From NCBI RefSeq assembly GCF_932294415.1, contig NC_065538.1, positions 11,662,330 through 11,726,329 on the forward strand: a stretch of 64,000 nt of DNA. The letters run 5' to 3'. Every line of letters starts with the position of its first letter. Position 1 is the stretch's first letter. This document shows, in pieces, positions 9,365 through 60,884 of this stretch. The notes beneath the pieces are model-generated. The model saw only the letters and a list, made by a program, of their open reading frames with translations. It made no database searches and was not told where the DNA came from. The translations under genes were made by a program, and so were the position numbers. This DNA comes from Quercus robur (Eukaryota > Streptophyta > Magnoliopsida > Fagales > Fagaceae).

Positions 9365-9369
9365 CTAGC

Positions 9370-10162
9370 CGCTAGGGATTTTGTCACAGAGGGCTATTTT
9401 CTTTGGATTGACTCTTTTATCCTATCATATAACTCTCTTCTAAATGGGGATCTTCCAATTCAAGCGCCATCTGGGTTATTCTATGTACAAGTTAAGATTG
9501 AGATTGTGACGAAATATAGGCTTGATTTGTACCGGGGTCGCATCCTTGATATGATGTCTGTATTGGATTTGTCATTAAACAAGCTAATAGGTGAAATCCC
9601 GCCAAAACTAGGACAGTTATCTTCCATTCGTGGACTAAACTTGTCTCATAATCACTTGACAGGTCCTATTCCAAAAACTTTCTCAAATTTGACTTTGTTA
9701 GAGAGCTTAGATCTTTCTCATAACAATTTGAGTGGGGAAATTCCTTCAACATTGATTGATTTGAACTCCCTGGAAATTTTCGATGTGTCTCACAATAACC
9801 TATCAGGTAAACTTCCAGATTTTAAAGCACAATTTGGAACATTTGAAAATAGTAGCTATGAAGGAAATCCATTTCTTTGCGGTCCACCACTACAGAAAAG
9901 TTGCACTGAGCAAGATGAGTCACCTCAATCACCACAAAAATCTTCAAAGGCAAGTGGGGGAAAACGTTATGAAGCTGATCTTCTGTTCTTCTATGCAAGT
10001 TTTTGGGTATCATACATTATTTTCTTTTTGGGTGTGATCAGTATTCTTTATATTAATCCTCATTGGCGGCAACGATGCTTTAACTTGGTTGAGGATCGAA
10101 TGTACTGGTGTTACCATTTTGCTCTAAATTCTCTAAAGCTGCTAAACCGTACGTGTCATTAG
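9370..10162 (+). CDS. RLP gene 1, C-terminal part after the insertion
   Basis: Continues the same exon after the LTR. It encodes the end of the island domain (IEIVTKYR then a Tyr/Gly-rich stretch), three to four last LRRs (LNLSHNHLTGPIPK, LDLSHNNLSGEIPS), the Cys-bearing cap (NPFLCGPPLQKSC), an acidic/Ser-rich spacer, a single membrane helix at about 9990-10053 and a short cytoplasmic tail ending at TAG. No start or promoter of its own is seen, so it is not an independent gene. Confidence 0.75.
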
Positions 10163-39100: not shown

Positions 39101-40629
39101 TGTCCAATAATAATTTTTCGGGAGAGGTACCAATGAAATTGGTTGCCAATTGCACCTCCCTGGTAGTTTTGAAGTTATCTAATAATGAATTTCAAGGTGA
39201 AATTTTCTCAAAGAGGTTCCAGTTTTTTAACAATAGCTTACGTGTTTTGGAATTGAACAACAATCATTTCAAAGGTACCCTTCTAGATAAAGTATCACCA
39301 ACTGGTTGTTACTTAGGGATCCTTGATATTAGCAACAATGGCTTCTCAGGTTTAATTCCCAACTGGCTAGGAAATATGCAGTTCCTTTGGTCTCTTGACA
39401 TGAGTAATAATTTTTTTGAAGGTCAAATTCCATGTGAAATGCATGCATATATTTTAGTAGACCTTTCTCATAACTGGCTTTCAGGATTGTCACCATCTTG
39501 TGCCGATTTATCCATCATTCAGCATCTATTTTTGCAAGGGAACAGACTCACAGGACAAATACCAAAAGTTACTTTTAGTGTTTCATTTCATCTTGTGACA
39601 TTGGACATTAGAGATAACCTATTTTCTGGGAGAATCCCTTATGAAGTTGGCGAGCTTTCAAATTTGAGAATACTGTTGTTGAGTGGCAACAATTTTAGTG
39701 GTGCGATTCCAAAGCAACTATGCTGGTTAAAGAATTTAAAGATTATGGATCTTTCAAAGAACTATCTTTCTGGAACAATACCACACTGCTTTCGCAACAT
39801 AACCTTTGGGAAGTTAAATGAAATTGAGGCTTTTGATGGTCTTCCCCAACCAAATTCCACTTTTTTGGAGTTCAGACATATAACTATCCCATATCAAGGT
39901 ATCTTAAATAGGTATTTTAAAATTCACGAGGTAGAACAAAAAGCTGCTGCTGATTTTGGAATTGAGTTTGTGACGAAATATAGGTCTTACTTCTACAAGG
40001 GTGGCATACTTGATATCATGTCTGGATTGGATTTGTCATTCAACAAGTTAACAGGTGAAATCCCTCTAGAGTTAGGACAACTATCTCCAATTCTTGCACT
40101 AAACTTGTCTTACAATCAGTTGACGGGTTTCATACCAACAACATTCTCAAATTTAACCCATTTAGAGAGCTTGGACCTTTCTCACAATAATTTAAGTGGA
40201 GAAATTCCTTCAATATTGATTGATCTACACTTTTTAGAAGTTTTCAATGTGGCTTGCAACAACTTATCAGGAAAACTTCCAGATATGAAAGGACAGTTTG
40301 CAACATTTCAAAATAGCAGCTATGAAGGAAATGCATTTCTTTGCGGTCCACCACTAGAGAAAAGTTGCACCAGGGTTGATAGTTCACCGCCATTACCAAG
40401 AAAATCTTTAACTACAAGTAAAGGGAAATGGTGTGAAGTAGATCCTTTAGTCTTCTCCACAAGTTTTTGGGTATCATACGTAATTTTTTTTATTGGTGTA
40501 TCTTGTATTCTCTATATTAATCCTTATTGGCGACAATGGTGCTTCAATCTAATTGAGTATCATATGTATAGGTGTTATTATTTTGCAGTTAATATGCTGA
40601 GAAGGCAATTAAACTATATTTGTCATTAG
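31502..40629 (+). CDS. LRR receptor-like protein (RLP) gene 2, apparently intact
   Basis: Cell-surface LRR receptor without kinase, acting at the plasma membrane with partner kinases; the ligand is unknown. Exons 31502-31904, 35985-36146, 36230-36304, 36543-36701, 37085-37159, 37271-37423 and 38351-40629 total 3,306 bases (1,101 residues). Every intron is phase 1. Residues 1 to about 24 form a signal peptide ending near SKG|CIEEER. An LRRNT cap follows (SECCGWERVMCN). Then come a long LRR array with LDLS/LDIS cores, an island region at about 830-895 (EFVTKYRSYFYKGG), four final LRRs (LDLSHNNLSGEIPS), the cap NAFLCGPPLEKSC, a membrane helix at about 1043-1066 (SFWVSYVIFFIGVSCILYI) and a ~35-residue tail. 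No stop or frameshift found. Intron 2 appears to start with GC. It resembles RLP14/15 or 'cuscuta receptor 1-like' annotations. Confidence 0.85.
32628..32941. mobile_element. Tourist-like MITE, copy 2 (opposite orientation to copy 1)
   Basis: 314 bp flanked by TTA at 32625-32627 and 32942-32944. The right end CTATCCAAACACACTC corresponds to the left end of copy 1 at 18509, and it shares AAAATTATTTTGCTACAGTG, AATGGGTCCCAC and ACTGTTCA motifs with it. It contains a strong internal foldback (GCGGTTACTGTTC / GAACAGTAACCGC) at about 32722-32751. Confidence 0.75.
33093..33127. repeat. (TTA)n microsatellite
   Basis: About eleven TTA units in intron 1 of RLP gene 2; gives spurious poly-Leu and poly-Asn frames. 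Confidence 0.9.
33200..34035. mobile_element. Possible decayed TIR element
   Basis: GCCTAAGGCCCCAAAGGGG near the left and, inverted, GGGGCACCCTAAGGAATTTT near the right could be diverged ends. A copy of the short MITE family (33502-33662: ACAATATTTTCACAAC, ATTGATTGGTAAAAAAGTAA, GTCAATGGTGAGTCC) sits inside. Assignment is weak. Confidence 0.3.
34990..35925 (-). mobile_element. LTR-like fragment in intron 1 of RLP gene 2
   Basis: Shares with 42285-43090, in the same orientation, AAAACCTGG, GGATTTGAC or AAGATTTGACC, CCTCAAG, TGCTACCTCATG and GATCGATCGAG-type motifs. Read on the minus strand it ends like 38220-38245 (CTAGGG then GTC(T)AAAAC). This is the pattern of an LTR family with diverged copies. 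No target duplication was resolved. Confidence 0.45.
36147..36229 (+). other. Intron 2 of RLP gene 2 with a GC donor
   Basis: The exon ends GCCCAAG and continues GCATGT; the phase-1 junction used by all other introns of the gene falls exactly on this GC. The acceptor is TTTTTACAG. AG|GC is the known rare GC-AG class, so this is a plausible functional intron. Confidence 0.6.
37615..38248 (+). mobile_element. LTR-like fragment in the last intron of RLP gene 2
   Basis: Begins TGTTAGGTTTTAG and ends near GGGGTCAAAACA, so TG...CA-like. It contains GATCGATCAAAC and TCAATTGATCGAAAG motifs of the LTR-like family at 34990 and 42285, but in the opposite orientation. No clear 5-bp duplication found. 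Confidence 0.45.
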
Positions 40630-43100: not shown

Positions 43101-43625
43101 CACTATAAAAAACGTGAGCTATAGCCGCGTTTTTTTTAGCAGCATTTGTAAAAACGCAGCTAAAGTGGGCTATAGCCGCATTTTAAGTAAACGTGGCTTA
43201 AAATGTCAGTCAATAGCCACGTGTTTAAAACGCAGCTATAGAATACGTCTACAGCCGCGTTTTTACGTGTTTATAGCCGCATTTTTTGGTTAGGAGCTAT
43301 TGCCGCGTTTTAAACATGCGGCTATAGGACCTCTCTATTTTATTATTATTATTTTTTTAATTTGAACTATGTCTGCGTGTTTAAAAGGCAGCTTTAGTTG
43401 CCTATAGCCGCGTTTTGTAAACGCGGCTATAAATTTAGGCTATAGACGCAAGTTAAAAACGCGACTTTAGGGTTTGTATAAATAGTATAACAAAAAACTG
43501 ATTAGCCCTTTTGTTGTAAACGTGGCTGTAAATTTAGTCTATAACCGCAGTTTAAAAACGCAACTTTAGGGTTTGTATAAATAGTATAACAAAAAACTGA
43601 TCAGCCCTTTTGTTCTGAAACGCTG
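43101..43625. mobile_element. CACTA-like element end with subterminal repeats
   Basis: Starts CACTATAAAAAACG, a CACTA TIR form, and is packed with GCTATAGCCGCG motifs in both orientations, as in CACTA subterminal regions. The last ~190 bp are a ~99-bp direct repeat (TTTAGGGTTTGTATAAATAG at about 43466 and 43565). No closing TAGTG end or transposase was found, so it is truncated. Confidence 0.6.
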
Positions 43626-43897: not shown

Positions 43898-43920
43898 TAT
43901 ATATATATATATATATATAT
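43898..43920. repeat. (TA)n tract at the left border of the viral cluster
   Basis: About 11 TA units directly abut the first base of the X-domain fragment at 43921. Endogenous caulimovirids (florendoviruses) are reported to lie often beside TA repeats. Confidence 0.9.
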
Positions 43921-44563
43921 GATCTTGTTTTAGAAAATAACTTTGCTTCAAAAAATGACATTGTTTCAAAAATTGAGGCTTTTGAAAGCCATCCTATTAA
44001 CTACCCAAATATCACAAATGAACCCAATACTAGTCAACTCTTTAGCAAAGAGGACATCCATTCAATGGATAAAAAGACTATTATGGGCACTGATTACGCA
44101 AGATTGAGTCTTAAGACCCAATCTTTGTTGAAAAGTGCTATTGCCAACTTGCCAACAGACATACAATCTCGTATTCTGGAAAGCAAGGCTATGTTTAAGT
44201 CTTCTGACTTATGGTTCGAACATTTCAAGATACTTGTTACAACTGTTATTCCTTATCCTGCTAATTCAGATGATTTTAGTGACATTCTTCAACAAGCTGA
44301 TTAGAAAGAACACTTTGGGAGTAGTTTCAGAGTGTATGAAAAGAAACACCCGTTTCCCGACCTTCTAGTCAATTATGATAATGGTTCAGATGATGTTAAA
44401 AGGAGTCCTAACTGGCTCTCCCAAATGTTTGAGTATGGCTTTATTAGGCTCATAAGACTAACAAGCCATGACCAAACCAGCCAGCTCCCACAAATCAGTC
44501 AGACTGCTATTAAAAAATTTGAAAGTCCTTTTGTTTCGATCAGATGCTGGATCACACCATATT
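43921..44563 (+). pseudogene. Partial copy of the X domain (viral-type element)
   Basis: Truncated at its 5' side by the (TA)n tract and at its 3' side by a jump into a terminal-repeat end. It encodes the middle of the unrecognised X domain (KEDIHSMDKKTIMGTDYARL, EKKHPFPDLLVNYD, PNWLSQMFEYGFIRL). It has a TAG stop at 44302-44304 where the other copies keep an open codon, and a frame change nearby. It is closer to the minus-strand copy than to the plus-strand copy. Confidence 0.75.
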
Positions 44564-44735
44564 TTTGAACTATTGTTCTCATTTACTTTGAGTTATATTC
44601 ATATATACTTGGCTGGTTCTACCGCTTTATAATTGTTCTTACTTTCAAGTTATTTACTTTTCAAGTTACTTACATTATTTTCTTTCCAATATTACTGTGC
44701 TTCCGTCTCTCTTCCCATCAACTGTGCGTCCCCTT
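44564..44735 (+). repeat. Remnant of the 5' terminal repeat, element 1
   Basis: Only the last ~170 bases of the ~860-bp repeat: TTGAACTATTGTTCTC through TTCCCATCAACTGTGCGTCC. The upstream part is deleted and replaced by the X fragment. Confidence 0.7.
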
Positions 44736-44744
44736 CCCCCTTTA

Positions 44745-44757
44745 TGGTATCAGAGCC
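44745..44757 (+). other. Primer-binding site, tRNA-iMet type (element 1)
   Basis: TGGTATCAGAGCC, the sequence complementary to the 3' end of plant initiator tRNA-Met and used by caulimovirids and many plant LTR elements. It lies about 285 bases before the movement-protein ATG. The mirror site of element 2 is at 59243-59255. Confidence 0.8.
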
Positions 44758-45027
44758 ACTCTTTTCTAGCTGGTGGTAGTGTTGTTGTGTCTTTGTTTCT
44801 TGTCCGTGTCTACCCGAATGCTTGATATTCCGTTGTTGTGTTCCCTTCTTACCGTCGTTGGTGCTACCCTAGTCGTAAAGTGAATTCCTAGAACCTAAAT
44901 GTAAGGCCCGTTTGAGCCAAGAGAGGGCATGTAGGGCATGAGAGGTATAAGGTTGGTTAGGGTATGTGTTACGAAATGCAATGGTTGTGAGAAAAACATG
45001 TTAACTGAGTGTTGAACCTAGGATAGT

Positions 45028-46110
45028 ATGGATAAGTTGTGGAGATCCAACTCCTCTATCAGCTCCTGGACTAGTTGTCCTCTTGATATTGTAAATGAAG
45101 AAGATCACACGATTGATGATAATGAGTTTATCCCTGATTTTCATCATTGCAATATTCCTAAAGTTGATACTAAAACTATTTATAAAACTAGTTTTTTTGA
45201 AAGTACTTTTCATTCTGCTTACAAAGTTAGAACTGTTGAACAAATTTTCTCTATTTCGATAGTTCATGAAAAATGCCGTTTGTTCACTAAAAAGAATATT
45301 AATGACTTTCTTGCTGCTAAAAAATTCAGTTATTTGCATATTAGCATGGTTCAAGTTGCTATTAAACCACTTACCCGAAAGGGTATTGATACTTCTGTTC
45401 TCATGTGTTTAAGAGATGCTAGATTTAAGATTTTCAAAGATAGCATTCTTGGTATGATTACTGCTTTTATGTATGATGGTCCTGTTTTTTTTAACTGTTA
45501 TACTGATCTTACTCTTGCTTTGGATGATCCTAATATTATTAAAGCTTTGACATTGAATATTGCTTCATCTGGTTATCACATGGAAGAGGGTAGTAAGCCT
45601 TTTGCTTTGATCTATCGCATTTATTATAAACTAATGGGTACTCAAATGAATCCTTGTGCTATGATTCCTAGAGAACCTTCGGGTAAAACCATGTTAATTC
45701 AATGTTCAACTCCTGATGCTAAAATTCAAGTTCCAAAAATGATTCAATGGCAAGATGTTAAACTTCCTAATGATTGGTTGTTGGAACAAGAAACCCCTCC
45801 TGCTAAACCTGTTTTTGATGAACTTGATCTTACTCATATTCAACAATTTCTTGATTGTACTGTTAAAATAAGTTTTCAAAACAATCCACCTTTGAGGATC
45901 AACGAAGGAAGACATTCCTTTGCTAGATCTGAAAATATTTCAAAAAGAGATCAAGAGATCAATGATTTTTTGAAAAAGAATTTGGAAAAATCCTCTGATT
46001 TAAAGCTAAAAGGTATTTCAAGTGATAAATCTCAAGTTAGCTCTGTTTACAATTCTACTAAACCTGAAACTTCCTCTCTGTTTACTATTCTACTAAACCT
46101 GAAACTTCCT
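45028..46110 (+). pseudogene. Viral movement protein (30K type), element 1
   Basis: Cell-to-cell movement protein that modifies plasmodesmata in plant viruses. The frame from ATG 45028 is open and carries the 30K-core features: SYLHISMVQVAIKPLTRKG, then VLMCLRDARF, and further on a conserved YDGPVFFNCY-like block and LTLNIA. The minus-strand element shows the same order. The frame then runs into the capsid-like linker, where a 35-bp tandem duplication (46041-46110) shifts it, so no full polyprotein can be made. Confidence 0.75.
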
Positions 46111-48040
46111 CTCCATTTAGTAGAACTACTAATGAAGATGAGGAAGACTCTGTTTCCATTACTCCATCCGACTTTGATTCTCCCCCTATTGAAAATCCTT
46201 CTGTTTACCAAAATAAATTACGAGTTTTGTCTATTTTGGATGAACACTTTGAGGTTGATTTGGTTTCTTTGTATGATGAATTTATGCTTGCAAAAAACAG
46301 AACCAAAAGAAAATATTTCCAAAATAATTTTGCTCAGTCTGAAAAAGACCGTGTTAAAAGAAAATGGTTGGAAAAGATGAATCAATTGAAAAAACATATT
46401 TTGTTTTTTGATTTTCTTGGAAACCATTATGTTTCAGAAGATGAGGTTTCAAAACAACATTTAAATGTGATAAAGAAATCAAATTTTGTTAAAATAGATA
46501 AAACCATTATTAGGTCTAGTCATCCTCCTCTTGACTCAATTTTGATAACTACTAAGAAAGATGAAGTGACAAAGGAGGAAGTGAAGGCCTCCCCTTTCAA
46601 AATTGCTGATGATAAAACTCTCATTGTTAGTCTTATTGAACAAAACAATTTTACTAATCAATCCTTGCATATTATTGGTCAACAGCTTGACCGTATTGAA
46701 GAAAAAATTGTTGAAAAATATGTTTCTGAAAAATCTGTTCCTGTTAAAACTGAAAAACCTTTGATTGATTTACCCAGTCAAAAAGAAAAAGTTATGTTTA
46801 AAACTTCTCAGCCTAAGACTCTTGAAATTGTTGAAAAAATGCTTTCTGATTTAAAAGTTAAAACTAAGGGTACTTCTACAAGCACTCCAACTGCTCGAAC
46901 TATTTCCAAAAAAGAAATTGTTTCTGAAGAAAATACAGATTCTAATACTGTTTCTTCTATTTCTGCAAAAAGAATCTTTGATGTTGATTTCCCAGAAATT
47001 AAAAGATTTGTTGGAAACTCCAAACCCATGTCTTTTACTAAAAACTGGTATTCAAAACCCACTCCTCCTGATATGCAGTTTGAAGAGAGATTTTTTCAAA
47101 CACAGTTTTCTGTTTCTGCTGATAAGCTTTATGAATGGAATATTGATGGTTTGTCTGAACAAGAAATCATCAATAAAATGAGTCATATGTCTATGGTTGG
47201 TATTGCTTATCAAAATAACCATAATCTTGATCAACCCAAAATTGTTAATTTGCTTGTTACTGGTTTTTCTGGTACTCTTCCTGGATGGTGGGATTCATAC
47301 ATCACTGAAGAATCCAGAGAGTCTATTAAACATGCTGTTAAAAAGAATGATGAAGGCTTGCCTATTTTTGATGAAAGTATTGGTTGTGGTATTCCTAATG
47401 GTGTCAATACCTTGATTTATACTATTCTCAAACACTTTGTTGGTACTCCATCCAATATTTCATCTCGTGTTTCTGATTATTTGAATAATTTGAGTTGTCC
47501 AACTATGTCTGATTACAGATGGTATCAAGATGTTTTTACTTCCAGAGTGATGCTTCGGAAAGATTGTCATAAGCCTTATTGGAAAGAAAAGTTTATTGAC
47601 GGTCTACCTCCTATCTTTGCTCATAAGGTAAAACAAGAGTTAATGGATAAAAATGATTCTATTGATTATGATAATTTAACCTATGGTGATATTTTCAGTA
47701 CTATTAAAAAAATTGGTATCAATATGTGTAATGATGAAAAATGGTTAAAACATCAATTAAAAAATAAAATAAAAGCTAAATATGAAATGGGAAATTTTTG
47801 TGAACAATATGGTTTGCCTCCTATTGCTCCTTCTAGGTAAAAAGGTAAAAAGCATGATAAAAGCCATAAAAAATATAAAAAATACAGAAATAACTTTGTT
47901 AAACCTAATGATTTTTATGCTAAGAAGAAAAATGTTTCTAAAAAACATGTTAAACAGAGATCAAGTAAAGGTAAATGTTTTAACTGTAGTAAACCTGGAC
48001 ACTTCAGCAAAGACTGTAAGGAAAAACCTGGTAAGTTAAA
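46111..48040 (+). pseudogene. Capsid/Gag-like domain with CCHC zinc knuckle, element 1
   Basis: The frame opened by the duplication runs from about 46111 to a TAA at 47838-47840. It has a charged Lys/Glu-rich linker, then a globular part with SFTKNWYSKPTPPDMQFEE, NLLVTGFSGTLPGWWDSY and YWKEKFIDGLPPIFAHKV, typical of the caulimovirid capsid/Gag-like fold with its conserved WW. After the TAA the same frame continues through a basic stretch and a zinc knuckle CFNCSKPGHFSKDC (47976-48016). The TAA replaces a CAA seen in element 2. Confidence 0.75.
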
Positions 48041-49153
48041 AAACAAATTGAACATGCTAAATATTGATGATAAAAAGCAAGAAGAATTATTCAGAATCCT
48101 TGAATCAAACAACTCATCTGATTCTTTGGAAGATGATCTTTCTTCTTCATCTAGATCCTGCTATCAATCTGCTGATGATTCTTCTGATTCTCCTAATATT
48201 AAAATTGATTGTAGAGATTCTTGTTGCAATGTTATAAAAACTATTAATGCTCTCACCAAGAGTGAAGAAGATGAAAAATTAATAATTCAACTAATAAATC
48301 AAATTCAAGACCCTGAACTACAAAAAGAATATTTGGATAGGTTTAAAAAAAAATGATAAGAGATGAAACTAGTAAAAAACCAAAATCTACTATAAGCTTT
48401 GAAGAAACTTTGGAAAGATTTAATAAAAAGAAATCTAAAGAACTAACTGTTAATGATCTCCAACATGAAATTCATATTGTTAAACAAGAGATAAATGAAT
48501 TAAAACATGAATTTAAAAGCATGAAAAGTGAAAACAATAATCTTAAACAAGAATTGATAATGTTAAAAATTGATAAAGATCTTAATAAATCCGATAATAA
48601 ACAAAATAAGCACAATGATGGATATGATTCCAGTCAACAGGCTCTTCTTTTTTATAAAGGTATTCCTGATACTTTCATTGATCCTCAACTTGTTTTTGTT
48701 AATAAAATACTTCCTCCAAAATGGTTTACAAAAGTTAAAATTGTTGTTTCTCCTTATTATCATTTCACTGTTATTGCTATGATTGATTTTGGTGCAGATA
48801 TGAATTGTATCCAAGAAGGATTAATTCCTTCAAAATATTTTGAAAAATCTACTGAAAGATTGGTTTCTGCTAATGGTTCTCAAATGAAAATTAAATATGA
48901 ATTGAATAATGCTCATGTGTGCCATGATAATGTTTATTTTAAGATTCCTTCTTTTCTTGTCAAAAATATGACTGATAAAGTGATTCTTGGTCTGCCATTT
49001 ATTAATGCTTTGTATCCCTTTCTTGTTGAACATGATGAAATTACTACTAATCCATTTGGACAGAAAGTAAAATTCAAATTTGCTTCAAAGTTTGAAATTG
49101 ATATTGATAATTTGTCTTATAAGAAAGATTCTCCCATGAATGAACTTATTTAA
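48041..49153 (+). pseudogene. Coiled coil and retropepsin-like aspartic protease, element 1
   Basis: Ser/Asp-rich linker, then a one-base loss in an A-run at about 48346-48355 that ends one frame and starts the next (ATG 48353). Heptad-rich segment (EIHIVKQEINELKHEFKSMK), then the retropepsin core: DFGAD at 48785-48799 in place of the usual D-S/T-G-A, and the later VILGLPFI, matching the Ile-Leu-Gly motif of retropepsins. TAA at 49151-49153 replaces CAA of element 2. The protease is catalytically doubtful. Confidence 0.7.
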
Positions 49154-51075
49154 GAACTAGTGATGAGTTCTTATCAAAATTTCACTGATGATTTTAAAGG
49201 TAATTTTCATAGTACCAAAATGTTAAATACTATCCATTATCCTAACATTATCAATGATTCTTTGCAGGAATCGAACAATGATGCGTGGATAAATACCACT
49301 AATAAGTGGGATAATAATAATAATATTCATATTTATACCACTAATAAGTGGATTATTATGTAAAAGAAAAATAAGGGAAAAGCTCCTACACAGGACTATT
49401 CTCTAATTGCAATGCATGAAGGTGCATCTTCTAGGATAAAATCCAGCGGATCAACATCCCTTCAGGGATATGTCCCAGCTGAAATGACATATTCCAGTGG
49501 TGATATGATAATTGCTTTATAGGAAGTCTTATCTAGGTCCTTACAATTTCATAATGGAGTCTATAGTGAATTACCAGATTCCATAAAATATATTATTGAT
49601 AATCTCTATACTGCTTTTACCAGAAAGAATCGTTCCTTGTTTGAAACAACCCTCCAAGCTCTCGAAATCCACCTTGTTAATCTTACTGCTCAGAATGAAG
49701 CTTATATAAGCTATGCTAACCTTATTTCAGAAAAAATCCTTACTTCGAAAAATGACCTTATTTCAAACCGTGTTCTAGGAAATGCTATTATTTCAGAAAA
49801 TGAGGCTTTTAGAAGCCATCTTGCTGACCATCCAAATATTCCAATTGATTCTTACATTAGTCAACTCTTTGGCAAAGAGGATATCCATTCAAAGGATAAA
49901 ATAACTATAATGGGCATTGACTATGCTAGATTGAGTCTTAAGACCCAATCTATGATAAGAAGTGCTTTTGCCAACTTGCCATCAGATATACAATCTCATA
50001 TTCTAAGAAGCAAGGCTATGTTTAGGTCTTTCGACCTATGGTTCAAATGTTTTAAGGAGCTTGTCACAGCCACTATTCCTGATCCTGATGAATTGGATGA
50101 AGGTGATAATGTCTTTATTCAGCTTGATTTGGAAGAACACTTTGGGAGTACTCTCAGTGTATATGAAAAGAAACACCCATTTCCTGGCCTTTTGATAAAT
50201 TATGATGATGGTGCAATTGTTGCTAATGATTCAGATGATGATGATGACAGGGACCCTAACTGGCTTTCACAAATGTTTGAATATTGCTTTATCAGATCTA
50301 TAAAATTAAGAAGCCATTATCAAGCCAGCCAACTCCCAGAAATTATTCAGGATGCTATTAAAGAACTTAACAGTCTTTTTGCTTCCATCAGGTGTTGGAG
50401 TACGTTGCTTCCATGGGAAAGAGATAACTGGATGAACGTCCAGCCTTCAAAGCATCTCATTCTCATTAATGGTCACACTCACCAAGGACCATGGTTTGAA
50501 GGAAATTCTCAATTATCTTTTGATAATCCTCGTGGTCTTGCAAAATGTTGGAGAAATTATTTTAATAACCAGATTATTAATGTTGCTCAAAATTTATGGA
50601 AAAATTATCATCTCATGGGATGCACAGATAGGATTTCTGTCTTTGGTCCCAGACCATATTCTGATGGCATTGCTCATTTGTGAATTGTTGATCATTGTAA
50701 TCCAAGGAGTCTTCTCATCCCAAGTAAAACTCTAACATTTGAGCCAATTTTATATTGTGGATTCTGTAACCAATACGCTATTTACCATTAGCATGCATGT
50801 GATTCTCTACAAGGTCATTTTGATCCTTTTGATGGTTATCCATTCGATGCTCCCTCTACTGATTGATGAGGTCACTACTGTTACAAGACTGGTGCTAATT
50901 TCTTTGCCCGACTTGTGCAAAAGCCAAAATATTTTATTATCCTTCAAATATGTTGCGAAAAATCCGGAACTGATTCATGATACTCCGGATTCTATGGAGG
51001 ATTTTGATTCTCCCATTTTTCTAGCCTACACAACGGCCAAAACTATTACAATATTCAAAATGCGTCTGAAAAGCC
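49154..51075 (+). pseudogene. Unrecognised X domain downstream of the protease, element 1
   Basis: This takes the place where RT-RNase H would follow. 49154-49636 has three more stops. From 49637 to 50683 the frame is open for 348 codons: helical N-terminal part, DYARLSLKTQSMIRSAFANL, an acidic Asp-run, DPNWLSQMFEYCFIRSIKL, then WERDNWMNVQPSKHLILING and ISVFGPRPY. After a TGA it continues toward a CGFC pair (50756-50767). I do not recognise the family. It is neither RT, RNase H, integrase nor a clear translational transactivator. Confidence 0.65.
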
Positions 51076-51094
51076 ACAAGCCATGATGATATAT

Positions 51095-51109
51095 GATGAG
51101 ATGAGAAGA
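51095..51109 (+). other. Polypurine-like tract before the terminal repeat
   Basis: A purine-rich stretch (GATGAGATGAGAAGA, one T in each half) immediately precedes TGCATCTGAC. The same arrangement is seen in element 2 (GAAGAGACGAGAAGA then TGCATCTGAC). This is where plus-strand priming would occur. Confidence 0.5.
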
Positions 51110-51913
51110 TGCATCTGACAAAGGCTTCATTTATGCCAACAAAAATATCACATTGAAGTCTTTTAAGAAAAGAAGTGAGAATCTACATACATGGTGGCAT
51201 GCATGATATTCCTTTTGCCCTTTTGCCATGCTTCTCCTAACAATGTTGGACCAAGTAAAAGACAAAAAGATTCAGAAGTTTTTAATTCAAAAAATGGAAA
51301 AAACACTATTAATTTTTACTGTTCACGGATTACTGTTCACAGATTATTGTTACTGACACTGTTCACTTTTACTGTTTATGATACTGTTCACTCCGAAATT
51401 TTGCCTACTTAAGGGGGGTTGTCCCTTAAATTTCAGGGTTTTTTCAAGTCAAGTTTTAGTTCTGATTTCTCTTCCCTTAGAACTAGCCTTCTTAGAGATA
51501 GAACTCACCCTACTTCCACTACTACTACCTTGTTCATCCTTGTTCACTACAAACTTTGTAATCTTACAAATCTTGTAACTAGGACTAGTTCAAGCTTTGT
51601 AACTGTTAACCTGTAACTGTTGAGATCTTGTATTCACTATTACTACTGTAAGTGTTTATCCTACTTTCAATAACAGGTATTTTCAATTAGTTTTATGTTC
51701 ATTATTCTACTTGTTGCTACCGCCACCTTAGACGGATTACAGCCATAACGGACGGTCCTAAATTGCTTTCATTTACTTTGAACTATTGTTCTCACTTACT
51801 TTGAGTTATTTTCATATATACTTGCTAGTTCTACCGCCTTATAATTGTTCTTACTTTCAAGATTATTGTTCTTACTTTCAGGTTATTTACTTTTTAAGTT
51901 ACTTACATTATTT
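51110..51913 (+). repeat. 3' terminal repeat of element 1 (truncated)
   Basis: Homologous to 59264-60125 and 52107-52926. Starts TGCATCTGACAAAGGC. It contains several ACTGTTCAC copies, a TATA-like CTACTTAAG at 51405-51413 and a T/C-rich leader. It stops at ACTTACATTATTT, about 75 bases short of the full end, where it meets an inverted capsid fragment. Confidence 0.75.
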
Positions 51914-52106
51914 GATAGGCAATACCAACCATAGACATGTGACTCATTTTATTGATGATTTCTTGTTCAGACAAACCATCAATATTCCATTCATAAAGCT
52001 TATCAGCAGAAACAGAAAACTGTGTTTGAAAAGATCTCTCTTCAAACTGCATATCAGGAGGAGTGGGTTTTGAATACCAGTTTTTAGTAAAAGACATGGG
52101 TTTGGA
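51914..52106 (-). pseudogene. Capsid-domain fragment between the two elements
   Basis: A 193-bp minus-strand piece equal to about 47020-47210 of element 1 (SFTKNWYSKPTPPDMQFEE through NKMSHMSMVGIAYQ). Both ends fall inside element sequence, joined to terminal repeats pointing toward it from each side. It forms the spacer of the large inverted repeat. Confidence 0.8.
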
Positions 52107-52926
52107 AGGGGATGCACAGTTGATGGGAAGAGACAGAAGTACAGTAATATTGTAAAGAAAATAATGTAAGTAACTTGAAAAGTAAATAACTTGAAAGTAA
52201 GAACAATAATTTTGAAAGTAAGAGCAATTATAAGGCGGTAGAACCAGCCAATATATGTGAAAATAACTCAAAGTAAATGAGAACAATAGTTCAAAGTAAA
52301 TGAAAGCAATTTAGAACCGTCCAGTATGGCGATAATCCGTTCAAGGTGGCGGTAGCAACAAGCAAAGTAATGAACATAGAACTGAAAATACTTGTTATTA
52401 AAAGTAGGATAAACACTTACAGTAGTGGTAGTGAATACAAGATCTCAACAGTATAAGTTAACAGTTACAAAACTTGAACTAGTCCTAGTTACAAGGTTTG
52501 TAGGATTACAAAGTTTGTAGTGAACAAGGATGAACAAGGTAGTAGTAGTGGAAGTAGGGTGAGTTCTCTCTCTAAGAAGGCTAGTTCTAAGGGAAGAGAA
52601 ATCAGAACTAAAACTTGACTTGAAAAACCCTGAAATTTAAGGGAAAACCCCCCCTTAAATAGGGAAAATTTCGGAATGAACAGTGTCATGAACAGTGTCA
52701 GTGAACAGTAATCCGTGAATAGTATTTTTTCCACTTTTTGAATTAAAAACTTCTGAACTTTTTGTCTTTTACTTGGTCCAACATTGTCAGGAGAAGCATG
52801 GCAAAAGGGCAAAAGGAACATCATGCATGCCACCATGTACGTGGATTCTCACTTCTTTTCTTAAAAGACTTCAATGTGATTTTTTTTTTTTTTTTTTTGG
52901 CATAAATGAAGCCTTTGTCAGATGCA
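52107..52926 (-). repeat. 3' terminal repeat of element 2
   Basis: 820 bp, reverse complement of the repeat at 51110-51913. TATA-like CTATTTAAG (minus) at about 52654-52662. Interrupted by a ~20-T run at 52880-52898. Its inner end abuts the capsid fragment. Confidence 0.75.
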
Positions 52927-52949
52927 TCTTCTCGTCTCTTCATATATCA

Positions 52950-54410
52950 TCATGGCTTGTGGCTTTCGAGACACATTTTGAATATTGTAATAGTTTTGAC
53001 CATTGTGCAGGCTAGACAAATAGGGGAATCAAAATCTTCCGCAGAATTTGGAGTATCATGAATCAATTCTGGATTTTCTGAAACATGTTTGAAGGACAAT
53101 AAAATATTTTGGCTTTTGTGCAAGCCAGACAAATGAAATAGCACCAGTCTTGCAATAGTAGTAACCTCAGGAATAAACTCATCAATCAGTGGAAGTAGCA
53201 TCTGATGGGTAGTCATCATAAGGTTCCCATGGAGGATCATCATTACATTCATGCTCATGATAGAGAACATATTGGTTACAAAATCCACAGTATAAAAGTG
53301 GCTCAAACTCTGGAGTTTTTCCTGGAGTGAGAAAACTTCTTGGATTACAGTGATCTTGTTATCCGCAAATGAGGAATGGCATTAGCATAAGGTCTCGGAC
53401 CAAAAACAGAAATTCTATCTGAATTCCCCATAAAGTGATAATTCTTCCATAAATTTTGAGCAACCCCACGAATTTGATTGTTAAAATAATTACTCCAGCA
53501 GTCTACAAGAGCCCAAGGATTTTTAAAGGATAAATAAGAGTCTCCTTCATACCATTGCCCTTGGTGCGTGTATCCATTAATGAGAATGAGATGTTTTGAG
53601 GGCTGGACATTCATCCAGTTATCTCTTTCCCATTGAGGCAAAGTGCTCCAGCATCTGATCGAAACAAAAGGACTTTCAAATTTTTTAATAGCAGTCTAAA
53701 TGATTTGTGGGAGCTGGCTGGTTTGGTCATGGCTTGTTAGTCTTATAAGCCTAATAAAGCCATACTCAAACATTTGGGAGAGCCAGTTAGGACTCCTCTT
53801 AACATCATCTGAACCATCATCATAATTGACTAGAAGGCCGGGAAATGGGTGTTTCTTTTCATCTACTCTGAAACTACTCCCAAAGTGTTCTTTCCAATCA
53901 GCTTGTTGAAGAATGTCACTAAAATCATCTGAATTAGCAGGATCAGGAATAACAATTGTAATAAGTATCTTGAAATGTTCAAACCATAAGTCAGAAGACT
54001 TAAACATAGCCTTGCTTTCTAGAATACGAGATTGTATGTTTGTTGGCAAGTTGGCAATAGCACTTTTCAACAAAGATTGGATCCTAAGACTCAATCTTGC
54101 CTAATCAGTGCCCATAATAGTCTTTTTATCCATTGAATGGATGTCCTCTTTGCCAAAGAGTTGACTAGTATTGGGTTCATCTGTGATATTTGGGTGGTTA
54201 ACAGGATGGCTTTCAAAAGCCTCAATTTTTGAAACAATGTCATTTTTGAAGCAAAGTTATTTTCTAAAACAAGATCATTTTCTGAAATAGGGTTAACTTG
54301 GTGGCTCACATAAGCTTCATTTTGAGCAATAAGGTTAACAAGATGGATTTCAAGGCTTTTGAGGGTTTTTTGGAAAAGATCATGGTGGTTTCTAATAAAA
54401 GCAAATTAAA
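52950..54410 (-). pseudogene. X domain, element 2
   Basis: Same domain as 49154-51075. Fragments: 54309-54091 with a frameshift, 54094-53696 open, 53641-53345 open, then a C-terminal part. It keeps KEDIHSMDKKTIMG, SNWLSQ-like PNWLSQMFEYGFIRL and WERDNWMNVQPSKHLILING. The C-terminal part has a CGFC pair (about 53279-53293) followed by an H-E-H-E-C cluster, so it may bind zinc. Stops include one before 53696 and one near 54107. Confidence 0.65.
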
Positions 54411-55395
54411 GGCTATCAAGGATGAATTTAATAGAATTTGGTAATTCTGAACAGGTTCCATTGTGGAATTGTAAATTTCTTGACAAAACTTCTTTTAAAG
54501 CAATTAGCATATCACCATTGGAATATGTCACCATTGCTGGGACATCTCCTTGAAGGGATGTTGATCCACTGCGTTTTACCCCAGAAGATGCGCCTTCATG
54601 CATTTTAAAAGGTTGTCCCACTGGGAACCCTTTATTTTGAGAATAGTCTTGTATAGGAACTTTTCCCTTGTTTTTCTTCTCCATAATAATCCACTTACTA
54701 GTGGTATAAATATGAATATTATTATTATTAGTATCCCACTTATTAGTGGTGTTTATCCGCGCATCATTATCCGATTCCTGCAAAGAATCATTGATAATGT
54801 TAGGATAATGGATAGTATTTAACATTTTGGTACTATGAAAATTACCTTTAAAATCATCAGTGAAATATTGGTAAGAACTCATCACTAGTTCTTGAATAAG
54901 TTCACTCATGGGAGAATCTTTTTTATAAGACAGATTATTAATATCAATTTCAAACTTTGAAGCAAATTTGAATTTTACTTTCTGTCCAGATGGATCAGTA
55001 GTAATTCCATCATGTTCAACAAGAAAGGGATACAAAGCATTAATAAATGGCAGACCAAGAATCACTTTATCAGTCATATTTTTGACAAGAATAGAAGGAA
55101 TCTTGAACAAGCATTATCATGGCACACATGAGCATTATTCAATTCATACTTAATTTTCATTTGAGAACCATTAGCAGAAACCAATCTTTCTGTAGATTTT
55201 TCAAAATATTTTGAAAGAATTAATCCTTCTTGGATATAGTTCATATCTGCACTAGAATCAATCATAGCAATAACAGTGAAATGATAATCAGGAGAAATAA
55301 CAATTTTAACTTTTGTAAACCATTTTGGAGGAAGTATTTTATTAACAAAAGCAAGTTGAGGATAAATGCAAGTATCAGGAATACCTTTATCAGAA
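54411..55395 (-). pseudogene. Retropepsin-like protease and downstream linker, element 2
   Basis: Active-site motif reads DSSAD (about 55247-55261), with the Gly changed, whereas element 1 has Phe at the second position. VILGLPFI follows in a shifted frame. After the protease the frame runs without RT motifs through a TNKW/TSKW-containing linker (54406-55110) straight toward X, ending in TAA at 54406-54408. Confidence 0.7.
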
Positions 55396-58360
55396 AGAAG
55401 AGCCTATTGACTGGATTCATCTCCATCGTTGTGCTCATTTTGTTTATCTTGTTCATTATCGGATTTATCTTTATCAATTTTTAACATTATCAATTCTTGT
55501 TTGAGATTATTGTTGTCACTTTTCATGCTTTTAAATTCATGTCTTAGTTCATCCATCTCTTGTTTAACAATATTAATTTCATGTTGGAGATCATTAATAG
55601 TTAGTTCTTTAAATTTCTTTTTATTAAATCTTTCTAAAGTTTCTTCAAAGCTTATAGTAGATTTTGGTTTTTTACTAGTTTCATCTTTTATCAAATTTTT
55701 CTTAAACCTATCCAAATATTCTTTTTGTAGTTCAAGGTTTTGAATTTGATTTATTAGTTGAATTATTATTGTTTCATCTTCTTCACTCTTGGTGAGAGCA
55801 TTAATAATTTTTATAACATTGCAACAAGAATCTTTACAACCAATTTTAATATTAGGAGAATTAGAAGAATCATCAGCAGATTGATAGTAAGAATCAGATG
55901 AAGAAGAATTCCAAAGAATCAGACGAGTTGTTTGATTCAAGGATTCTGAATAACTCTTCTTGCCCTTTATCATCAATATTTAGCATGTTAAATTTGTTTT
56001 TCAACTTATCGGGTTTTTCTTTACAATCTTTACTGAAGTGTCCAGATTTACCACAGTTAAAACATTTACCTTTACCTGATCTTTGTTTAACATATTTTTT
56101 AGAAACATTTTTCTTAGCATAAAATTCATTAGGTTTAATAAAGTTATTTCTGTGTTTTTTTATATTTTTTATGGCTTTTATCATCTTTTTTACTTTTTTG
56201 CCTAGAAGGAGCAATAGGAGGCAAACCATATTGTTCACAGAAATTTCTCATTTCATATTTAGCTTTTCTTTTATTCTTTAATTGGTGTTTTAGCAATTTT
56301 TCATCATTACACATATTGATACCAAGTTTTTTAATAGTACTGAAAATATCACCATAAGTCAAATTATCATAATTAATAGAATCATTTTTACTCATTAATT
56401 CTTGTTTTACCTTATGAGCAAAGATAGGAGGCAAACCATCAATAAACTTTTCTTTCCAATAAGGCTTATGACAATCTTTCCGGAGCATCACTCTGGAAGT
56501 AAAAACATCTTGATATCATCTGTAATCAGACATAGTAGGACAACTCAAATTATTCAAATAATTAGAAACACGAGATGAAATATTGGATGGAGTACTAACA
56601 AAATGTTTGAGAATAGTATAGATCAAGGTATTAACACCATCAGGAATACCACGACCAATACTTTCATCAAAAATAGGCAAACCTTCATCATTCTTTTTAA
56701 CAGCATGTTTAATAGACTCTCTGGTTTCTTCAGTGATGTATGAATCCCACCATCCAGGAAGAGTACCAGAAAAACCAGTAACAAATGGATTAACTATTTC
56801 AGGTTGATCAAGATCATGATTATTTTGATAAGCAATACCAACCATAGACATGTGACTCATTTTATTGATGATTTCTTGTTCAGGCAAACTGTCAATATTC
56901 CATTCATAAAGCTTATCAGTAGAAACAGAAAACTATGTTTGAAAATATCTCTCTTCAAACTGCATATTAGGAGGAGTGGGTTTTGAATACCAGTTTTTAG
57001 TAAAAGACATGGGTTTGGAGTTTCCAACAAATCTTTTAATTTCTGGGAAATCGTTATAAAAGATTCTTTTTGCAGAAATAGAAGAAACAGTATCAGAACT
57101 GTATTTTCTTCAGAAACAACTTCTTTTTTGGAAATAGTTCGAGCAGTTGGAGTACTTGTAAAAGTACCCTTCGTTTTAACTTTTAAATTTGAAAGCATTT
57201 TTTCAACAATTTCAAGAGTCTTAGACTGAGAAGTTTTAAACATAACTTTTTCTCTTTGACTGGGTAAATCAATCAAAGGTTTCTCAATTTTAACAGGAAC
57301 ATATTTTTCAGAAACAGGTTTTTCAACAATTTTTTCTTCAATATGGTCAAGCTGTTGACCAATAATATGCAAGGATTGATTAGTAAAATTGTTTTGTTCA
57401 ATAAGACTAACAATGAGAGTTTTATCATCAGCAATTTTGAAAGGGGAGGCCTTCACTTCCTCTTTTGTCACTTCATCTTTCTTAGTAGTTATCAAAATTG
57501 AGTCAAGAGGAGGATGACTAGACCTAATAATGGTTTTATCAATTTTAAAAAAATTTGATTTCTTTATCACATTTAAATGTTGTTTTGAAACCTCATTTTC
57601 TGAAACATAATGGTTTTCAAGAAAATCAAAAAACAAAATATGTTTTTTCAATTGATTCATCTTTTCCAACCATTTTCTTTTAACACGGTCTTTTTTAGAC
57701 TGAGCAAAATTATTTTGGAAATATTTTCTTTTGGTTCTGTTTTTTGCAAGCATAAATTCATCATACAAAGAAACCAAATCAACTTCAAAGGGTTCATTCA
57801 AAATAGTCAAAACTCGTAATTGATTTTGATAAACAGGAGGATTTTGAATAGAGGGAGAATCAAAGTCAGATGGAGTAACAAAAACAGAGTCTTCTTCATC
57901 ATTAACAGCAACATTGTCATAAGGAGAGGAAGATTCAGCTTTAGTAGAATAGAAAGGAGTGCTAACTTGTGAATTACCACTGGAAACTCCTTTTAGCTTT
58001 AAATCAGAGGATTTTTCCAAATTCTTTTTCAAAAAATCATTGATCTCACGATCTCTTTTTGAAATACTTTCAGATCTAGCAAAGGAATGTCTTCTTTCGT
58101 TGATCCTCAAAGGTGAATTGTTTTGAAAACTTATTTTAACAGTACCATTAAGATATTGTTGGATATGAGTAAGATCAAGTTCATCAAAAACAGGTTTAGC
58201 AGTAGAGGTTTCTTGTTCCAACAACCAATCATTAGGAAGTTTAACATCTTGCCATTGAATCATTTTTGGAACTTGAATTTTAGCATCAGGAGTTGAACAT
58301 TGAATTAACATGGTTTTACCCGAAGGTTCTCTAGGAATCATAGCACAAGGATTCATTTAT
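55396..58360 (-). pseudogene. Capsid-like domain, CCHC knuckle and coiled coil, element 2
   Basis: 58356-56857 holds the end of the movement protein, the charged linker and the start of the capsid domain, with a one-base loss near 57095. 56887-56516 and 56491-56144 hold the capsid core, separated by TGA replacing a Trp codon. 56238-55894 has the knuckle CFNCGKSGHFSKDC. 55976-55404 has the Ser-rich linker and heptads ending at TAG. The breaks differ from those of element 1. Confidence 0.7.
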
Positions 58361-58974
58361 GTACCCATTAGTTTATAATAAATGCGATAGATCAAAGCAA
58401 AAGGCTTACTACCCTCTTCCATGTGATAAACAGATCAAGCAATATTCAATGTCAAAGTTTTAACAATATTAGGACCATCCAAAGCAAGAGTAAGATCAGG
58501 ATAACAGTTAAAATAAATAGGACCATCATACATAGAAGCAGTGATCATACCAAGAATGCTATCTTTGAAAATCTTAAATCTAGCATCTCTTAAGCACATA
58601 AGAATAGAAGCATTAATACCCTTTCGGGTAAGTGGTTTAATAGCAACTTGAACCATACCAATATGCAAATAACTGAATTTTTTAGCAGCAAGGAAGTCAT
58701 TAATGTTCTTTTTAGTGAACAAACAACATTTTTCATGAACTATCAAAATAGAGAAAATTTGTTCAACAGTTCTAGCTTTGTAAGCAGAATGAAAAATACT
58801 TTCAACAAAACTAGTTTTATAAATAGTTTTAGTATCAACTTTAGGAATAGTCCAATTACGAAAATCAGGGATCAACTCATTATAATCAATAGTGTGATCT
58901 TCTTCATTTACAATACCAGGAGGACAACTAGTCCTAGAGCTAATAGAGGAGTTGGATCTCCACAATCTATTCAT
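58361..58974 (-). pseudogene. Viral movement protein (30K type), element 2
   Basis: Starts at ATG 58974-58972, open to a TGA at 58435-58437; a further TAA lies just before the ATG at 58356. It retains SYLHIGMVQVAIKPLTRKG and CLRDARFKIFKDSI. It differs from element 1 at scattered positions, mostly conservative. Confidence 0.75.
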
Positions 58975-59242
58975 ACTATCCTAGGTTCAACACTCAGTTA
59001 TCATGTTTTTCTCACAACCATTGCATTTCGTAACACATACCCTAACCAACATTATACTCTCACGCCCTACACGCCCTCTCTTAGCTCAAATGGCCTTACA
59101 GTTAGGTTCTAGGAATTCACTTTACGACTAGGGTGGCGCCAACGACGGTAAGAAGGGAACACAACAACAGAATATCAAGCGTTCAGGTAGATATGGACAA
59201 GAAACAAAGACACAACAACACTATCACCGGCTAGAAAAGAGT

Positions 59243-59255
59243 GGCTCTGATACCA
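59243..59255 (-). other. Primer-binding site, tRNA-iMet type (element 2)
   Basis: GGCTCTGATACCA on the + strand, i.e. TGGTATCAGAGCC read on the element strand, lying about 9 bases inside the terminal repeat and about 270 bases before the movement-protein ATG. Confidence 0.8.
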
Positions 59256-59263
59256 TAAAGGTC

Positions 59264-60125
59264 GAAGGGGACGCACAGTTGATGGGAAGAGAGACGGAAG
59301 CACAGTAATATTGGAAAGAAAATAATGTAAGTAACTTGAAAAGTAAATAACTTGAAAGTAAGAACAATAATCTTGAAAGTAAGAACAATTATAAGGCGGT
59401 AGAACCAACCAAGTATATATGAAAATAACTCAAAGTAAATGAGAACAATAGTTCAAAGTAAATGAAAGCAATTTAGAATCGTCCGGTATGGCGGTAATCC
59501 GTCCAAGGTGGCGGTAGTAACAAGTAGAATAATGAACATAAAATTAACTGAAAATACTTGTTATTGAAAGTAGGATAAACACTTACAGTAGTAGTAGTGA
59601 ATACAAGATCTCAACAGTTACAGGTTAACAATTACAAAACTTGAACTGGCTCTAGTTACAAGGTTTGTAAGATTACAAAGTTTGTAGTGAACAAGGATGA
59701 ATAAGGTAGTAGTAGTGGAAGTAGGGTGAGTTCTCTCTCTAAGAAGGCTAGTTCTAAGGGAAGAGAAATCAGAACTAAAACTTGACTTGAAAAAATCCTG
59801 AAATTTAAGGGACAACCCCCCTTAAATAGGCAAAATTTCGGAGTAAACAGTGTCATGAACAGTAAAAGTGAACAGTGTCAGTGAACAGTAATCTGTGAAT
59901 AGTAATCCGTGAACAGTAAAAGTGAATAGTATTTTTTCCACTTTTTGAATTAAAAACTTCTGAATCTTTTTGTCTTTTACTTAGTCCAACATTATCAGGA
60001 GAAGCATGGTAAAAGGGCAAAAGGAACATCATGCATGCCACCATGTACGTAGATTCTCACTTCTTTTCTAAAAAGACTTCAATATGATATTTTTGTTGGC
60101 ATAAATGAAGCCTTTGTCAGACACA
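59264..60125 (-). repeat. 5' terminal repeat of element 2 (~862 bp)
   Basis: Full-length copy starting TGTGTCTGACAAAGGC (minus) and ending just before the primer site. Promoter-like part: several ACTGTTCAC/ACTATTCAC boxes (59850-59935) and a TATA-like CCTATTTAAG at 59821-59830 (minus). Downstream T/C-rich leader. The outer edge coincides with the base that follows the purine tract in the internal copy. Confidence 0.75.
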
Positions 60126-60884
60126 TCTTATATATTTGTCTCTACTCCTCTTAAATCGTTGTGTTTTGCCTTTGTCTAGTTTAGTATTGTCACAACCTTT
60201 TTGTTACTATGTATTGGTGTGGTCCAACAACTAGGTTGATGTGGTGCATGTTTACATGACCTTATTAGAGCAAGTCTGAACTGCACCTAGTAGTGCCGGG
60301 ATTTTTGGGGTAGCGTGGTTCTAAAAGTAGCTTGCTTTTGTATGTTTGTATATTTCATTGCATACAAATTTATGAAATGGTATGACTTAGAAGCTAATTG
60401 TAATTATTAGGATACGATTTGTAATATGCGGTTAAATTAACTCATATTTATGAATTCAGTATGGCTTGATCTTTCAAATTCTTCTTGGATTCTTTCATGG
60501 TCAGATGGGAGCTCCAATATCCTTAGCGGCTGTAGTGTTGGTTTTTTCTTACCCTCTTTAACTTTTTTGGGCACGGTTGCCAATTGGTCAAGTTATTCCA
60601 TACCATACAGTGAAAATAAAGTCATGCTCTATTTGGAATGTTTGTATCTGATCTCATGTTAGGCCCTTTGTTTTATTTGTCTTGCAAATATGATGTCATT
60701 AATTGGGTAAATATCTCAGATTCTATTTATGGTGTTGATCATATAACTTTCTAGTCTATATCCAGTTTACATGTGATAAAAGCTTTACTTACTCTGTAGA
60801 AATTGTGTTATTGTTTCAAATATTTAGTTTTCTGCAGTTTATCATTCTCTAATGTGTTGGCCTGATTGTCTTTCTTTCATGCAG
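60126..60884. other. Right flank of the viral cluster
   Basis: TATATATTTG follows the element edge. No gene is supported; a 70-codon frame at 60450-60662 is not recognised. Confidence 0.4.

What the first reader, a model, noticed from the sequence alone, without database searches (positions are those of the whole stretch)
43921..60125. Two RT-less retroelements carrying a viral movement protein, capsid, protease and a shared unknown domain
Both elements run movement protein, capsid-like, CCHC, coiled coil, retropepsin and then X, with no RT or RNase H. Independent copies lacking the same module suggest the family was amplified in this form, using RT in trans. A bipartite genome has been proposed for some endogenous florendoviruses (Caulimoviridae); this could be the RT-less half of such a virus, or a non-autonomous LTR element that took viral genes. 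Seen: domain order and absence. Known: caulimovirid gene order. Inferred: trans dependence.
Basis: partly seen in the sequence, partly recalled or inferred. Interest (0 to 1): 0.88.

Follow-up and report, generated by a model that had tools for sequence, protein, structure and literature searches.

The report
RT-less half of a two-part virus
The window holds fossil copies of a plant DNA virus segment that lost its polymerase gene; the same tree genome carries a partner segment that has the polymerase but a ruined capsid zinc knuckle, which suggests that the two parts needed each other.

Summary
Confirmed and explained. At 43,920-60,129 lies one compound insertion of an endogenous caulimovirid: two head-on copies with movement protein, capsid, CCHC knuckle, coiled coil, retropepsin and domain X, and no RT or RNase H. 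The host genome (Fagaceae, probably an oak) holds many such "B" copies; at least nine have one unbroken frame of about 1,900 codons running capsid to X, with no room for RT. It also holds an RT-bearing partner "A": MP, capsid, protease, RT, RNase H, plus an ORF2 ("Y") not detectably related to X. A and B sit together (36 of 68 A copies within 20 kb of B, against 1 of 60 for another RT lineage), share leader, MP and intergenic region (95-99% in the two arrays read) and look complementary: CCHC is intact in 0 of 17 informative A copies and 7 of 8 B copies; capsid-core dN/dS is 0.72 in A, about 0.10 in B. 7 of 22 ends stop at the tRNA primer site and 11 of 22 run into TA repeats, so these are not LTR elements. 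Split caulimovirids are published for grape, grasses and beet; this is a new, well-preserved variant. X remains unexplained.

The parts
43898..43919 (.). (TA)11 microsatellite directly abutting the left end of the insertion
43920..44555 (+). X fragment, 96% identical to X of copy 2; joined to a partial intergenic region (internal deletion)
44564..44737 (+). partial intergenic region upstream of the primer site, copy 1
44745..44758 (+). tRNA-Met primer binding site TGGTATCAGAGCCA, copy 1
45022..46067 (+). movement protein (PF01107), copy 1
46068..47840 (+). capsid region: DUF7588, DUF7746, Caulimovir_coat_dom, copy 1
47841..48356 (+). CCHC zinc knuckle CFNCSKPGHFSKDC, copy 1
48347..49153 (+). 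coiled coil and retropepsin, copy 1 (active site D-F-G, broken)
49523..50683 (+). domain X, copy 1 (no Pfam family; named relatives all Lithocarpus, the rest unnamed contigs)
51106..51924 (+). intergenic region, copy 1 (94% to that of copy 2)
51911..52106 (-). stray inverted capsid fragment joining the two copies (98% to 47019-47214)
52105..52930 (-). downstream intergenic region, copy 2; its match ends 8 nt short of where the primer site would begin (59264 against 59255 in the upstream repeat)
53345..54405 (-). domain X, copy 2 (broken into pieces)
54406..55403 (-). retropepsin and X N-terminus, copy 2 (active site D-S-S, broken)
55894..56247 (-). CCHC zinc knuckle CFNCGKSGHFSKDC, copy 2
56516..58356 (-). 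capsid region, copy 2 (broken frame)
58435..58980 (-). movement protein, copy 2
59242..59255 (-). tRNA-Met primer binding site, copy 2
59264..60129 (-). upstream intergenic region, copy 2; right end of the insertion, then ATATAT

Best explanation
The window holds two dead copies of genome part B of a split caulimovirid (plant pararetrovirus). B encodes one polyprotein, movement protein-capsid-CCHC-protease-X, and no RT or RNase H. Part A, in the same host genome, encodes movement protein-capsid-protease-RT-RNase H plus ORF2 (Y), but its capsid zinc knuckle is destroyed and its capsid is under weak constraint. Both share the tRNA-Met primer site, leader and intergenic region. Most likely mechanism: both parts were transcribed from the shared intergenic promoter in the same cells; capsid with a working CCHC knuckle from B packaged both RNAs; RT-RNase H from A copied both (inferred). 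Shared regions were kept alike by recombination during co-infection (inferred from A-B identity). Linear DNA ends at the primer-site discontinuity were caught in breaks at TA repeats, singly or as A-B arrays (ends shown; repair mechanism inferred).
For: Architecture: 38 of 39 same-strand capsid-X pairs within 8 kb lie 1,665-1,757 bp apart; 11 of 74 scored capsid copies sit in a frame of at least 1,850 codons with no stop in the match, and 9 of these 11 have an X row with the same frame length. Partner A. Co-location: 36 of 68 A copies within 20 kb of B, 1 of 60 for the other RT lineage, about 0.6% expected. Shared sequence: leader 98.6%, MP 98.3% between A and the neighbouring B in one array; intergenic A-B 95.0 and 95.9% within locus, 92.1-92.9% across loci, A-A between subgroups 84-85%. 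Complementary loss: CCHC intact in 0 of 17 informative A copies, 7 of 8 B copies. dN/dS A-A (one pair): MP 0.20, capsid 0.71-0.72, knuckle region 2.28, protease 0.18, RT-RNase H 0.05, Y 0.21; B-B medians: capsid core 0.10, knuckle 0.17, MP 0.26, X 0.35; capsid core A against B P=6e-5 with L001-L007, 0.015 with L001-L003. Ends at the primer site in (TA)n.
Against: No expression, particle or replication evidence. dN/dS in A rests on one pair of copies (L069, L070), whose dS runs from 0.05 (knuckle) and 0.09 (capsid) to 0.34 (RT) and 1.45 (Y), so regions have different histories and low-dS regions carry relatively more neutral change after integration; the fairer yardstick is MP (dS 0.13, ratio 0.20; against capsid N part P=0.006, against knuckle P=0.0005). 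B's own capsid N part (0.39) and protease (0.38) are not tightly kept. Intergenic identity across loci within one kind (A-A 95.7%, B-B 95.1%) equals that between A and B within a locus, so partner-specific homogenisation is not shown there. A keeps DUF7588, DUF7746 and coat domain, so some capsid function may remain. Only 20 A copies were read at the knuckle. Counts are lower bounds because only the best candidates are scored. Another caulimovirid lineage in this genome has CCHC upstream of RT (8 of 30 loci as cut) and could have helped either part. Virus genus was not tested with reference viruses.
Confidence: 0.8

Rival explanations
1. B is a one-sided satellite or defective genome of an autonomous caulimovirid: it uses RT in trans and gives nothing back.
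For: Shared intergenic region and co-location need only that B used A's enzymes. Chen et al. 2017 propose such a commensal pair in rice. Another RT lineage in the genome keeps CCHC in at least 8 of 30 loci. A still has most capsid domains.
Against: A has lost its CCHC and its capsid evolves under weak constraint (0.72), while B's capsid core is tightly kept (about 0.10). A pure parasite would not need a conserved capsid.
Confidence: 0.14
2. A non-autonomous LTR retrotransposon that captured viral movement and capsid genes.
For: Repeated ends next to an exact tRNA-Met primer site look like LTRs.
Against: Ends lie at the primer site or at other points, half of them in (TA)n; the window insertion has no target duplication; one unit-length A copy starts and stops at the primer site (L070); the array read has a single intergenic region between units; all recognised coding domains and the partner are caulimovirid; no integrase was found in the pieces of A scanned.
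Confidence: 0.02
3. The window copies are simple deletion products made after integration in the host.
For: Both window copies are rearranged and frame-broken.
Against: The same capsid-X spacing recurs in 38 of 39 pairs across chromosomes, with unbroken frames in at least nine, and X is not listed beside RT.
Confidence: 0.02

Closest known systems
Florendovirus components A and B (Geering et al. 2014, PMC4241990; passages read)
   Same: Component B is MP-CP-AP without RT plus a C-terminal extension; A and B share MP (>87%) and intergenic region (>90%); compound insertions; (TA)n flanks.
   Different: There the B extension is reported homologous to A's ORF2; here X and Y show no detectable homology. 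There A (grape) has the capsid domain partly or wholly deleted; here A keeps the capsid domains with in-frame deletions and has lost the zinc knuckle. Fagaceae is not in the passages read.
ePVCVL / ePVCVL2 and eRTBVL2 of grasses (Chen et al. 2017, PMC5491270; abstract, parts of Results, passages read)
   Same: RT-less partner MP-CP-PR with an unknown domain (SFKTE) where RT/RH would be; RT-bearing partner without CP or, in the non-Oryza group, a CP-like region without zinc finger; shared intergenic regions homogenised by recombination.
   Different: Different host order; unbroken frames in several copies and a per-domain selection contrast measured here. X's most conserved motif SLKTQ resembles SFKTE, but homology could not be tested.
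Apparently one-part caulimovirids of Castanea and Quercus lobata (NCBI proteins P0123, P0239, P0240, P0254)
   Same: Same kind of capsid, knuckle and protease, protease directly followed by RT.
   Different: CCHC and RT start in one protein, unlike A or B.

Membership tests
Caulimoviridae (endogenous) | 30K movement protein, caulimovirid coat domain with CCHC, retropepsin | tested here: met
Caulimoviridae (endogenous) | RT and RNase H | tested here: not met
   absent from B; present in partner A with YIDD
Caulimoviridae (endogenous) | tRNA-Met primer site and intergenic region in a circular or concatemeric genome | tested here: met
Bipartite florendovirus, component B | MP-CP-AP polyprotein, RT missing, C-terminal extension | tested here: met
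Bipartite florendovirus, component B | extension homologous to ORF2 of component A | tested here: not met
   X against Y: blastp E 6.4; hhalign probability 0.2% and 0.1%; no usable fold (X model mean pLDDT 39; Y not folded)
Bipartite florendovirus, component B | intergenic region >90% and MP >87% nt identical to an A component | tested here: met
   intergenic 95.0 and 95.9% in two arrays, MP 98.3% in one; the window copies themselves reach only 84% intergenic, with 93% MP, to the A copies read
Florendovirus (genus) | position within the florendovirus clade in AP-RT-RH1 trees | not tested
   no reference florendovirus sequences on hand; the RT tree holds public plant proteins only
Florendovirus (genus) | insertion bias to (TA)n | tested here: met
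   11 of 22 ends, background 1.8%
LTR retrotransposon | LTR ends and target-site duplication, integrase | tested here: not met
   duplications examined at the window only

The most novel reading that the evidence does not exclude
An obligately two-part pararetrovirus of Fagaceae whose RT-less part carries an unrelated, constrained protein X in place of RT-RNase H and ORF2, caught while A's capsid was decaying because B had taken over packaging. X may be a eudicot relative of the grass SFKTE domain, which would mean that RT-less parts in distant plants share a common accessory protein.
Probability: 0.3. Interest if true: 0.8.

Novelty: new variant of a known kind. Interest (0 to 1): 0.62.

Why it matters
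Whether retro-transcribing viruses can have divided genomes rests on a few sets of fossils. Here several copies of both parts keep intact frames, the two parts lie together in arrays, and selection can be read domain by domain: the capsid core is guarded in one part and loosened in the other, while the polymerase is guarded where it exists. That makes mutual dependence testable from sequence alone, and older RT-bearing copies with the longer knuckle region (L083, L088) may show the one-part ancestor.

Tried and rejected
Led nowhere: IMG/VR scans with capsid, A's RT-RNase H and the X alignment gave no relative; PDB sequence searches gave none for the capsid and only one chance-level match (E 0.8) for X; PHROGs gave one chance-level match (E 0.07) for the capsid and none for X; Pfam on X and Y gave nothing below E 0.28. 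The AlphaFold model of X (job, collected) is unusable: mean pLDDT 39.1, pTM 0.26, mostly short helices; I ran no fold search with it. The job for Y was never accepted. The protein comparison hit between the X and Y alignments lies in capsid columns carried along by long members and was discarded; trimmed profiles show no match. In one search the A-A values for capsid core and Y were out of frame; both were redone. The B-B capsid core was out of frame and empty; it was redone.

Considered and rejected: LTR element, deletion products, X as a hidden RT (no RT match in the window; no Pfam family; not examined further).

Rows left out: of 150 RT rows (A-like; other lineage) were used (a third lineage at 74-76%, and fragments) were left out, chosen by eye from identity and match range; of 110 X rows three tail fragments were left out; of 146 rows, 81 were given, six partial rows of 85-94% identity being left out together with the other lineages; of 111 Y rows 108 were used. 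Of the 3' ends, L020/L022 and L032/L033 share flanks, so the 11 of 22 are about 9 of 20 independent ends and the binomial value is too small by that much; L002 and L004 also share flanks.
Full report
WHAT IS THERE. The finding is real. Copy 1 (+, 44,564-51,924) and copy 2 (-, 52,105-60,129) each run movement protein, capsid (DUF7588, DUF7746, Caulimovir_coat_dom), CCHC, coiled coil, retropepsin, X. RT, RNase H and ORF2 of a related RT-bearing element give no significant match in the window. They are one compound insertion, with an X fragment at the left and an inverted capsid fragment between the copies, set against a TA microsatellite. Both copies are broken.

THE HOST GENOME. The window lies in a 785.7 Mb plant assembly. 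An RT piece of a Quercus lobata protein is up to 99% identical to host copies and the named X relatives among the 120 listed of 122 are all Lithocarpus, so the host is a member of Fagaceae, probably an oak (inference). The capsid finds 1,063 candidates (74 scored), X 909 (107 scored, 110 matches). Of the 74 capsid rows, 11 sit in a frame of at least 1,850 codons without a stop in the match; for 9 of these the X row has the same frame length. Capsid and X are 1,665-1,757 bp apart in 38 of 39 same-strand pairs (one at 824). The RT-less form was therefore amplified as such.

THE PARTNER. An RT query found two main groups of copies. One, 76-81% identical to the query, includes frames of 1,580-1,650 codons; 8 of the 81 A rows used have at least 1,580 codons and no stop in the match. 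Two copies were read (L069, L070): MP (89% aa identical to the window), capsid with in-frame deletions, protease (D-S-G), RT (YIDD), RNase H, then ORF2 of 446/442 codons, here called Y. Y lies downstream of RT in 69 of 81 A copies and has relatives in Castanea, Prunus, Salix and legumes. X is not listed closer than 7.3 kb downstream of A's RT (68 copies). X and Y are not detectably homologous.

PAIRING. 36 of 68 A copies lie within 20 kb of a listed B copy, against 1 of 60 copies of another RT lineage; listed B copies put about 0.6% of the genome within that distance. In the one junction read (L069), A is followed head to tail by B with a single intergenic region and primer site between them. 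There A and its neighbour B are 98.6% (leader) and 98.3% (MP) identical, more than A to A of another subgroup (95.6, 95.5%) or either to the window's B (91-93%). Intergenic regions: within-locus A-B 95.0 and 95.9%, cross-locus A-B 92.1 and 92.9%; but cross-locus A-A of the same subgroup 95.7% and B-B 95.1% are as high; A-A across subgroups 84-85%, young B to window B 86-87%. So A and B of one generation are closer than A to A or B to B of different generations, as expected of partners that recombine; with two loci, partner-specific matching in the intergenic region is not shown. A Lithocarpus gene model (P0236) carries Y, capsid and X in one prediction, a lead that the pairing exists there.

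DIVISION OF LABOUR. At the zinc knuckle 20 A copies were read: 14 have lost the CCHC pattern by substitution and small deletions, most in an open frame; one has the whole segment deleted in frame (L084); two older ones keep the longer segment but not an intact CCHC (L083, L088); three were uninformative (L078, L086, L087). Seven of eight B copies have an intact CCHC, as have both window copies. dN/dS between the two A copies: MP 0.20, capsid N part 0.71, capsid core 0.72, knuckle region 2.28 (19 non-synonymous, 2 synonymous), protease 0.18, RT-RNase H 0.05, Y 0.21. Between B copies without stops (medians): capsid N part 0.39 (15 pairs), capsid core 0.10 (10 pairs), knuckle 0.17 (6 pairs), protease 0.38 (21 pairs), MP 0.26 (28 pairs), X 0.35 (21 pairs). 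The A regions differ in dS (0.05-1.45), a sign of recombination, so neutral change after integration weighs more in capsid (0.09) than in RT (0.34); but MP (0.13) has similar dS and keeps 0.20, so late decay alone does not explain the contrast. The straightforward reading is that B supplied the working capsid and A the enzymes. It rests on one A pair.

INTEGRATION. Of 30 X loci, 22 show a 3' viral/host boundary; 11 of the 22 have (TA)4 or more at the boundary, background 1.8%; two pairs share flanks. Seven of the 22 stop at or within TTTATGGTAT, the start of the primer site. L070 begins and ends at the primer site inside TA repeats, and L002 and L004, which share flanks, begin there. This fits linear viral DNA opened at the primer-site discontinuity and joined at TA repeats; the discontinuity is recalled knowledge of caulimovirids, the joining mechanism is inferred. 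Geering et al. report (TA)n flanks for florendoviruses and propose end joining; I saw no mention of the primer-site end in the passages read.

NOVELTY. Split caulimovirids are published: florendovirus components A and B in grape, rice and sorghum (PMC4241990, passages), sugar beet (cited in PMC10377300, passage), and complementary non-autonomous pararetroviruses of grasses (PMC5491270, abstract, part of Results, passages). For Fagaceae, one search found no paper and one forest-virome review (PMC8399312); the 12 of 18 passages shown name an episomal badnavirus of chestnut and no endogenous caulimovirid of oak. PMC5766536 and PMC9719215 do not name Quercus in their main text. Subscription papers were not searched. 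New here, as far as these searches go: the Fagaceae system, an A part that keeps capsid domains but has lost its knuckle, an accessory X unrelated by sequence to A's ORF2, and a selection contrast by domain. X's strongly conserved motif SLKT(Q) resembles the SFKTE motif of the grass RT-less viruses; this is a lead, not a test.

Noticed in passing
G000:C5:12331089-12336579 and C5:12543571-12549061: Pair of similar loci with a nearly full-length capsid (query 4-590) and RT 1,190 bp apart and part of Y further on: a possible one-part ancestor.
   Followed up: partly
Pfam PF24496 (DUF7588) and PF24925 (DUF7746): These two families of unknown function lie in the N-terminal and central parts of the capsid region of endogenous caulimovirids, in Castanea, Carya, Prunus, Rhododendron and legumes among others.
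   Followed up: partly
window 49411-51145 against 52891-54604: The two window copies carry different X alleles (77-87% identical) on otherwise 92-96% identical backbones; Y in the partner likewise has a near type and a type of about 55-60% identity, so the 3' genes seem to be exchanged by recombination.
   Followed up: partly
G000, 60 RT rows at 81-99% identity: A second caulimovirid lineage, nearly identical to a Quercus lobata protein, is abundant in the genome and does not associate with B (1 of 60 within 20 kb).
   Followed up: partly
L010, L011, L012, L013, L015, L020, L022, L070: Viral ends at the start of the tRNA primer site, in most of them followed directly by TA repeats.
   Followed up: yes
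window 6609-10162 and 38278-40629: Leucine-rich-repeat reading frames; the first pair is separated by a GC-rich tandem array at 8464-9183.
   Followed up: no
window 43415-43623: 99-bp tandem repeat, two copies, 0.3 kb left of the insertion.
   Followed up: no
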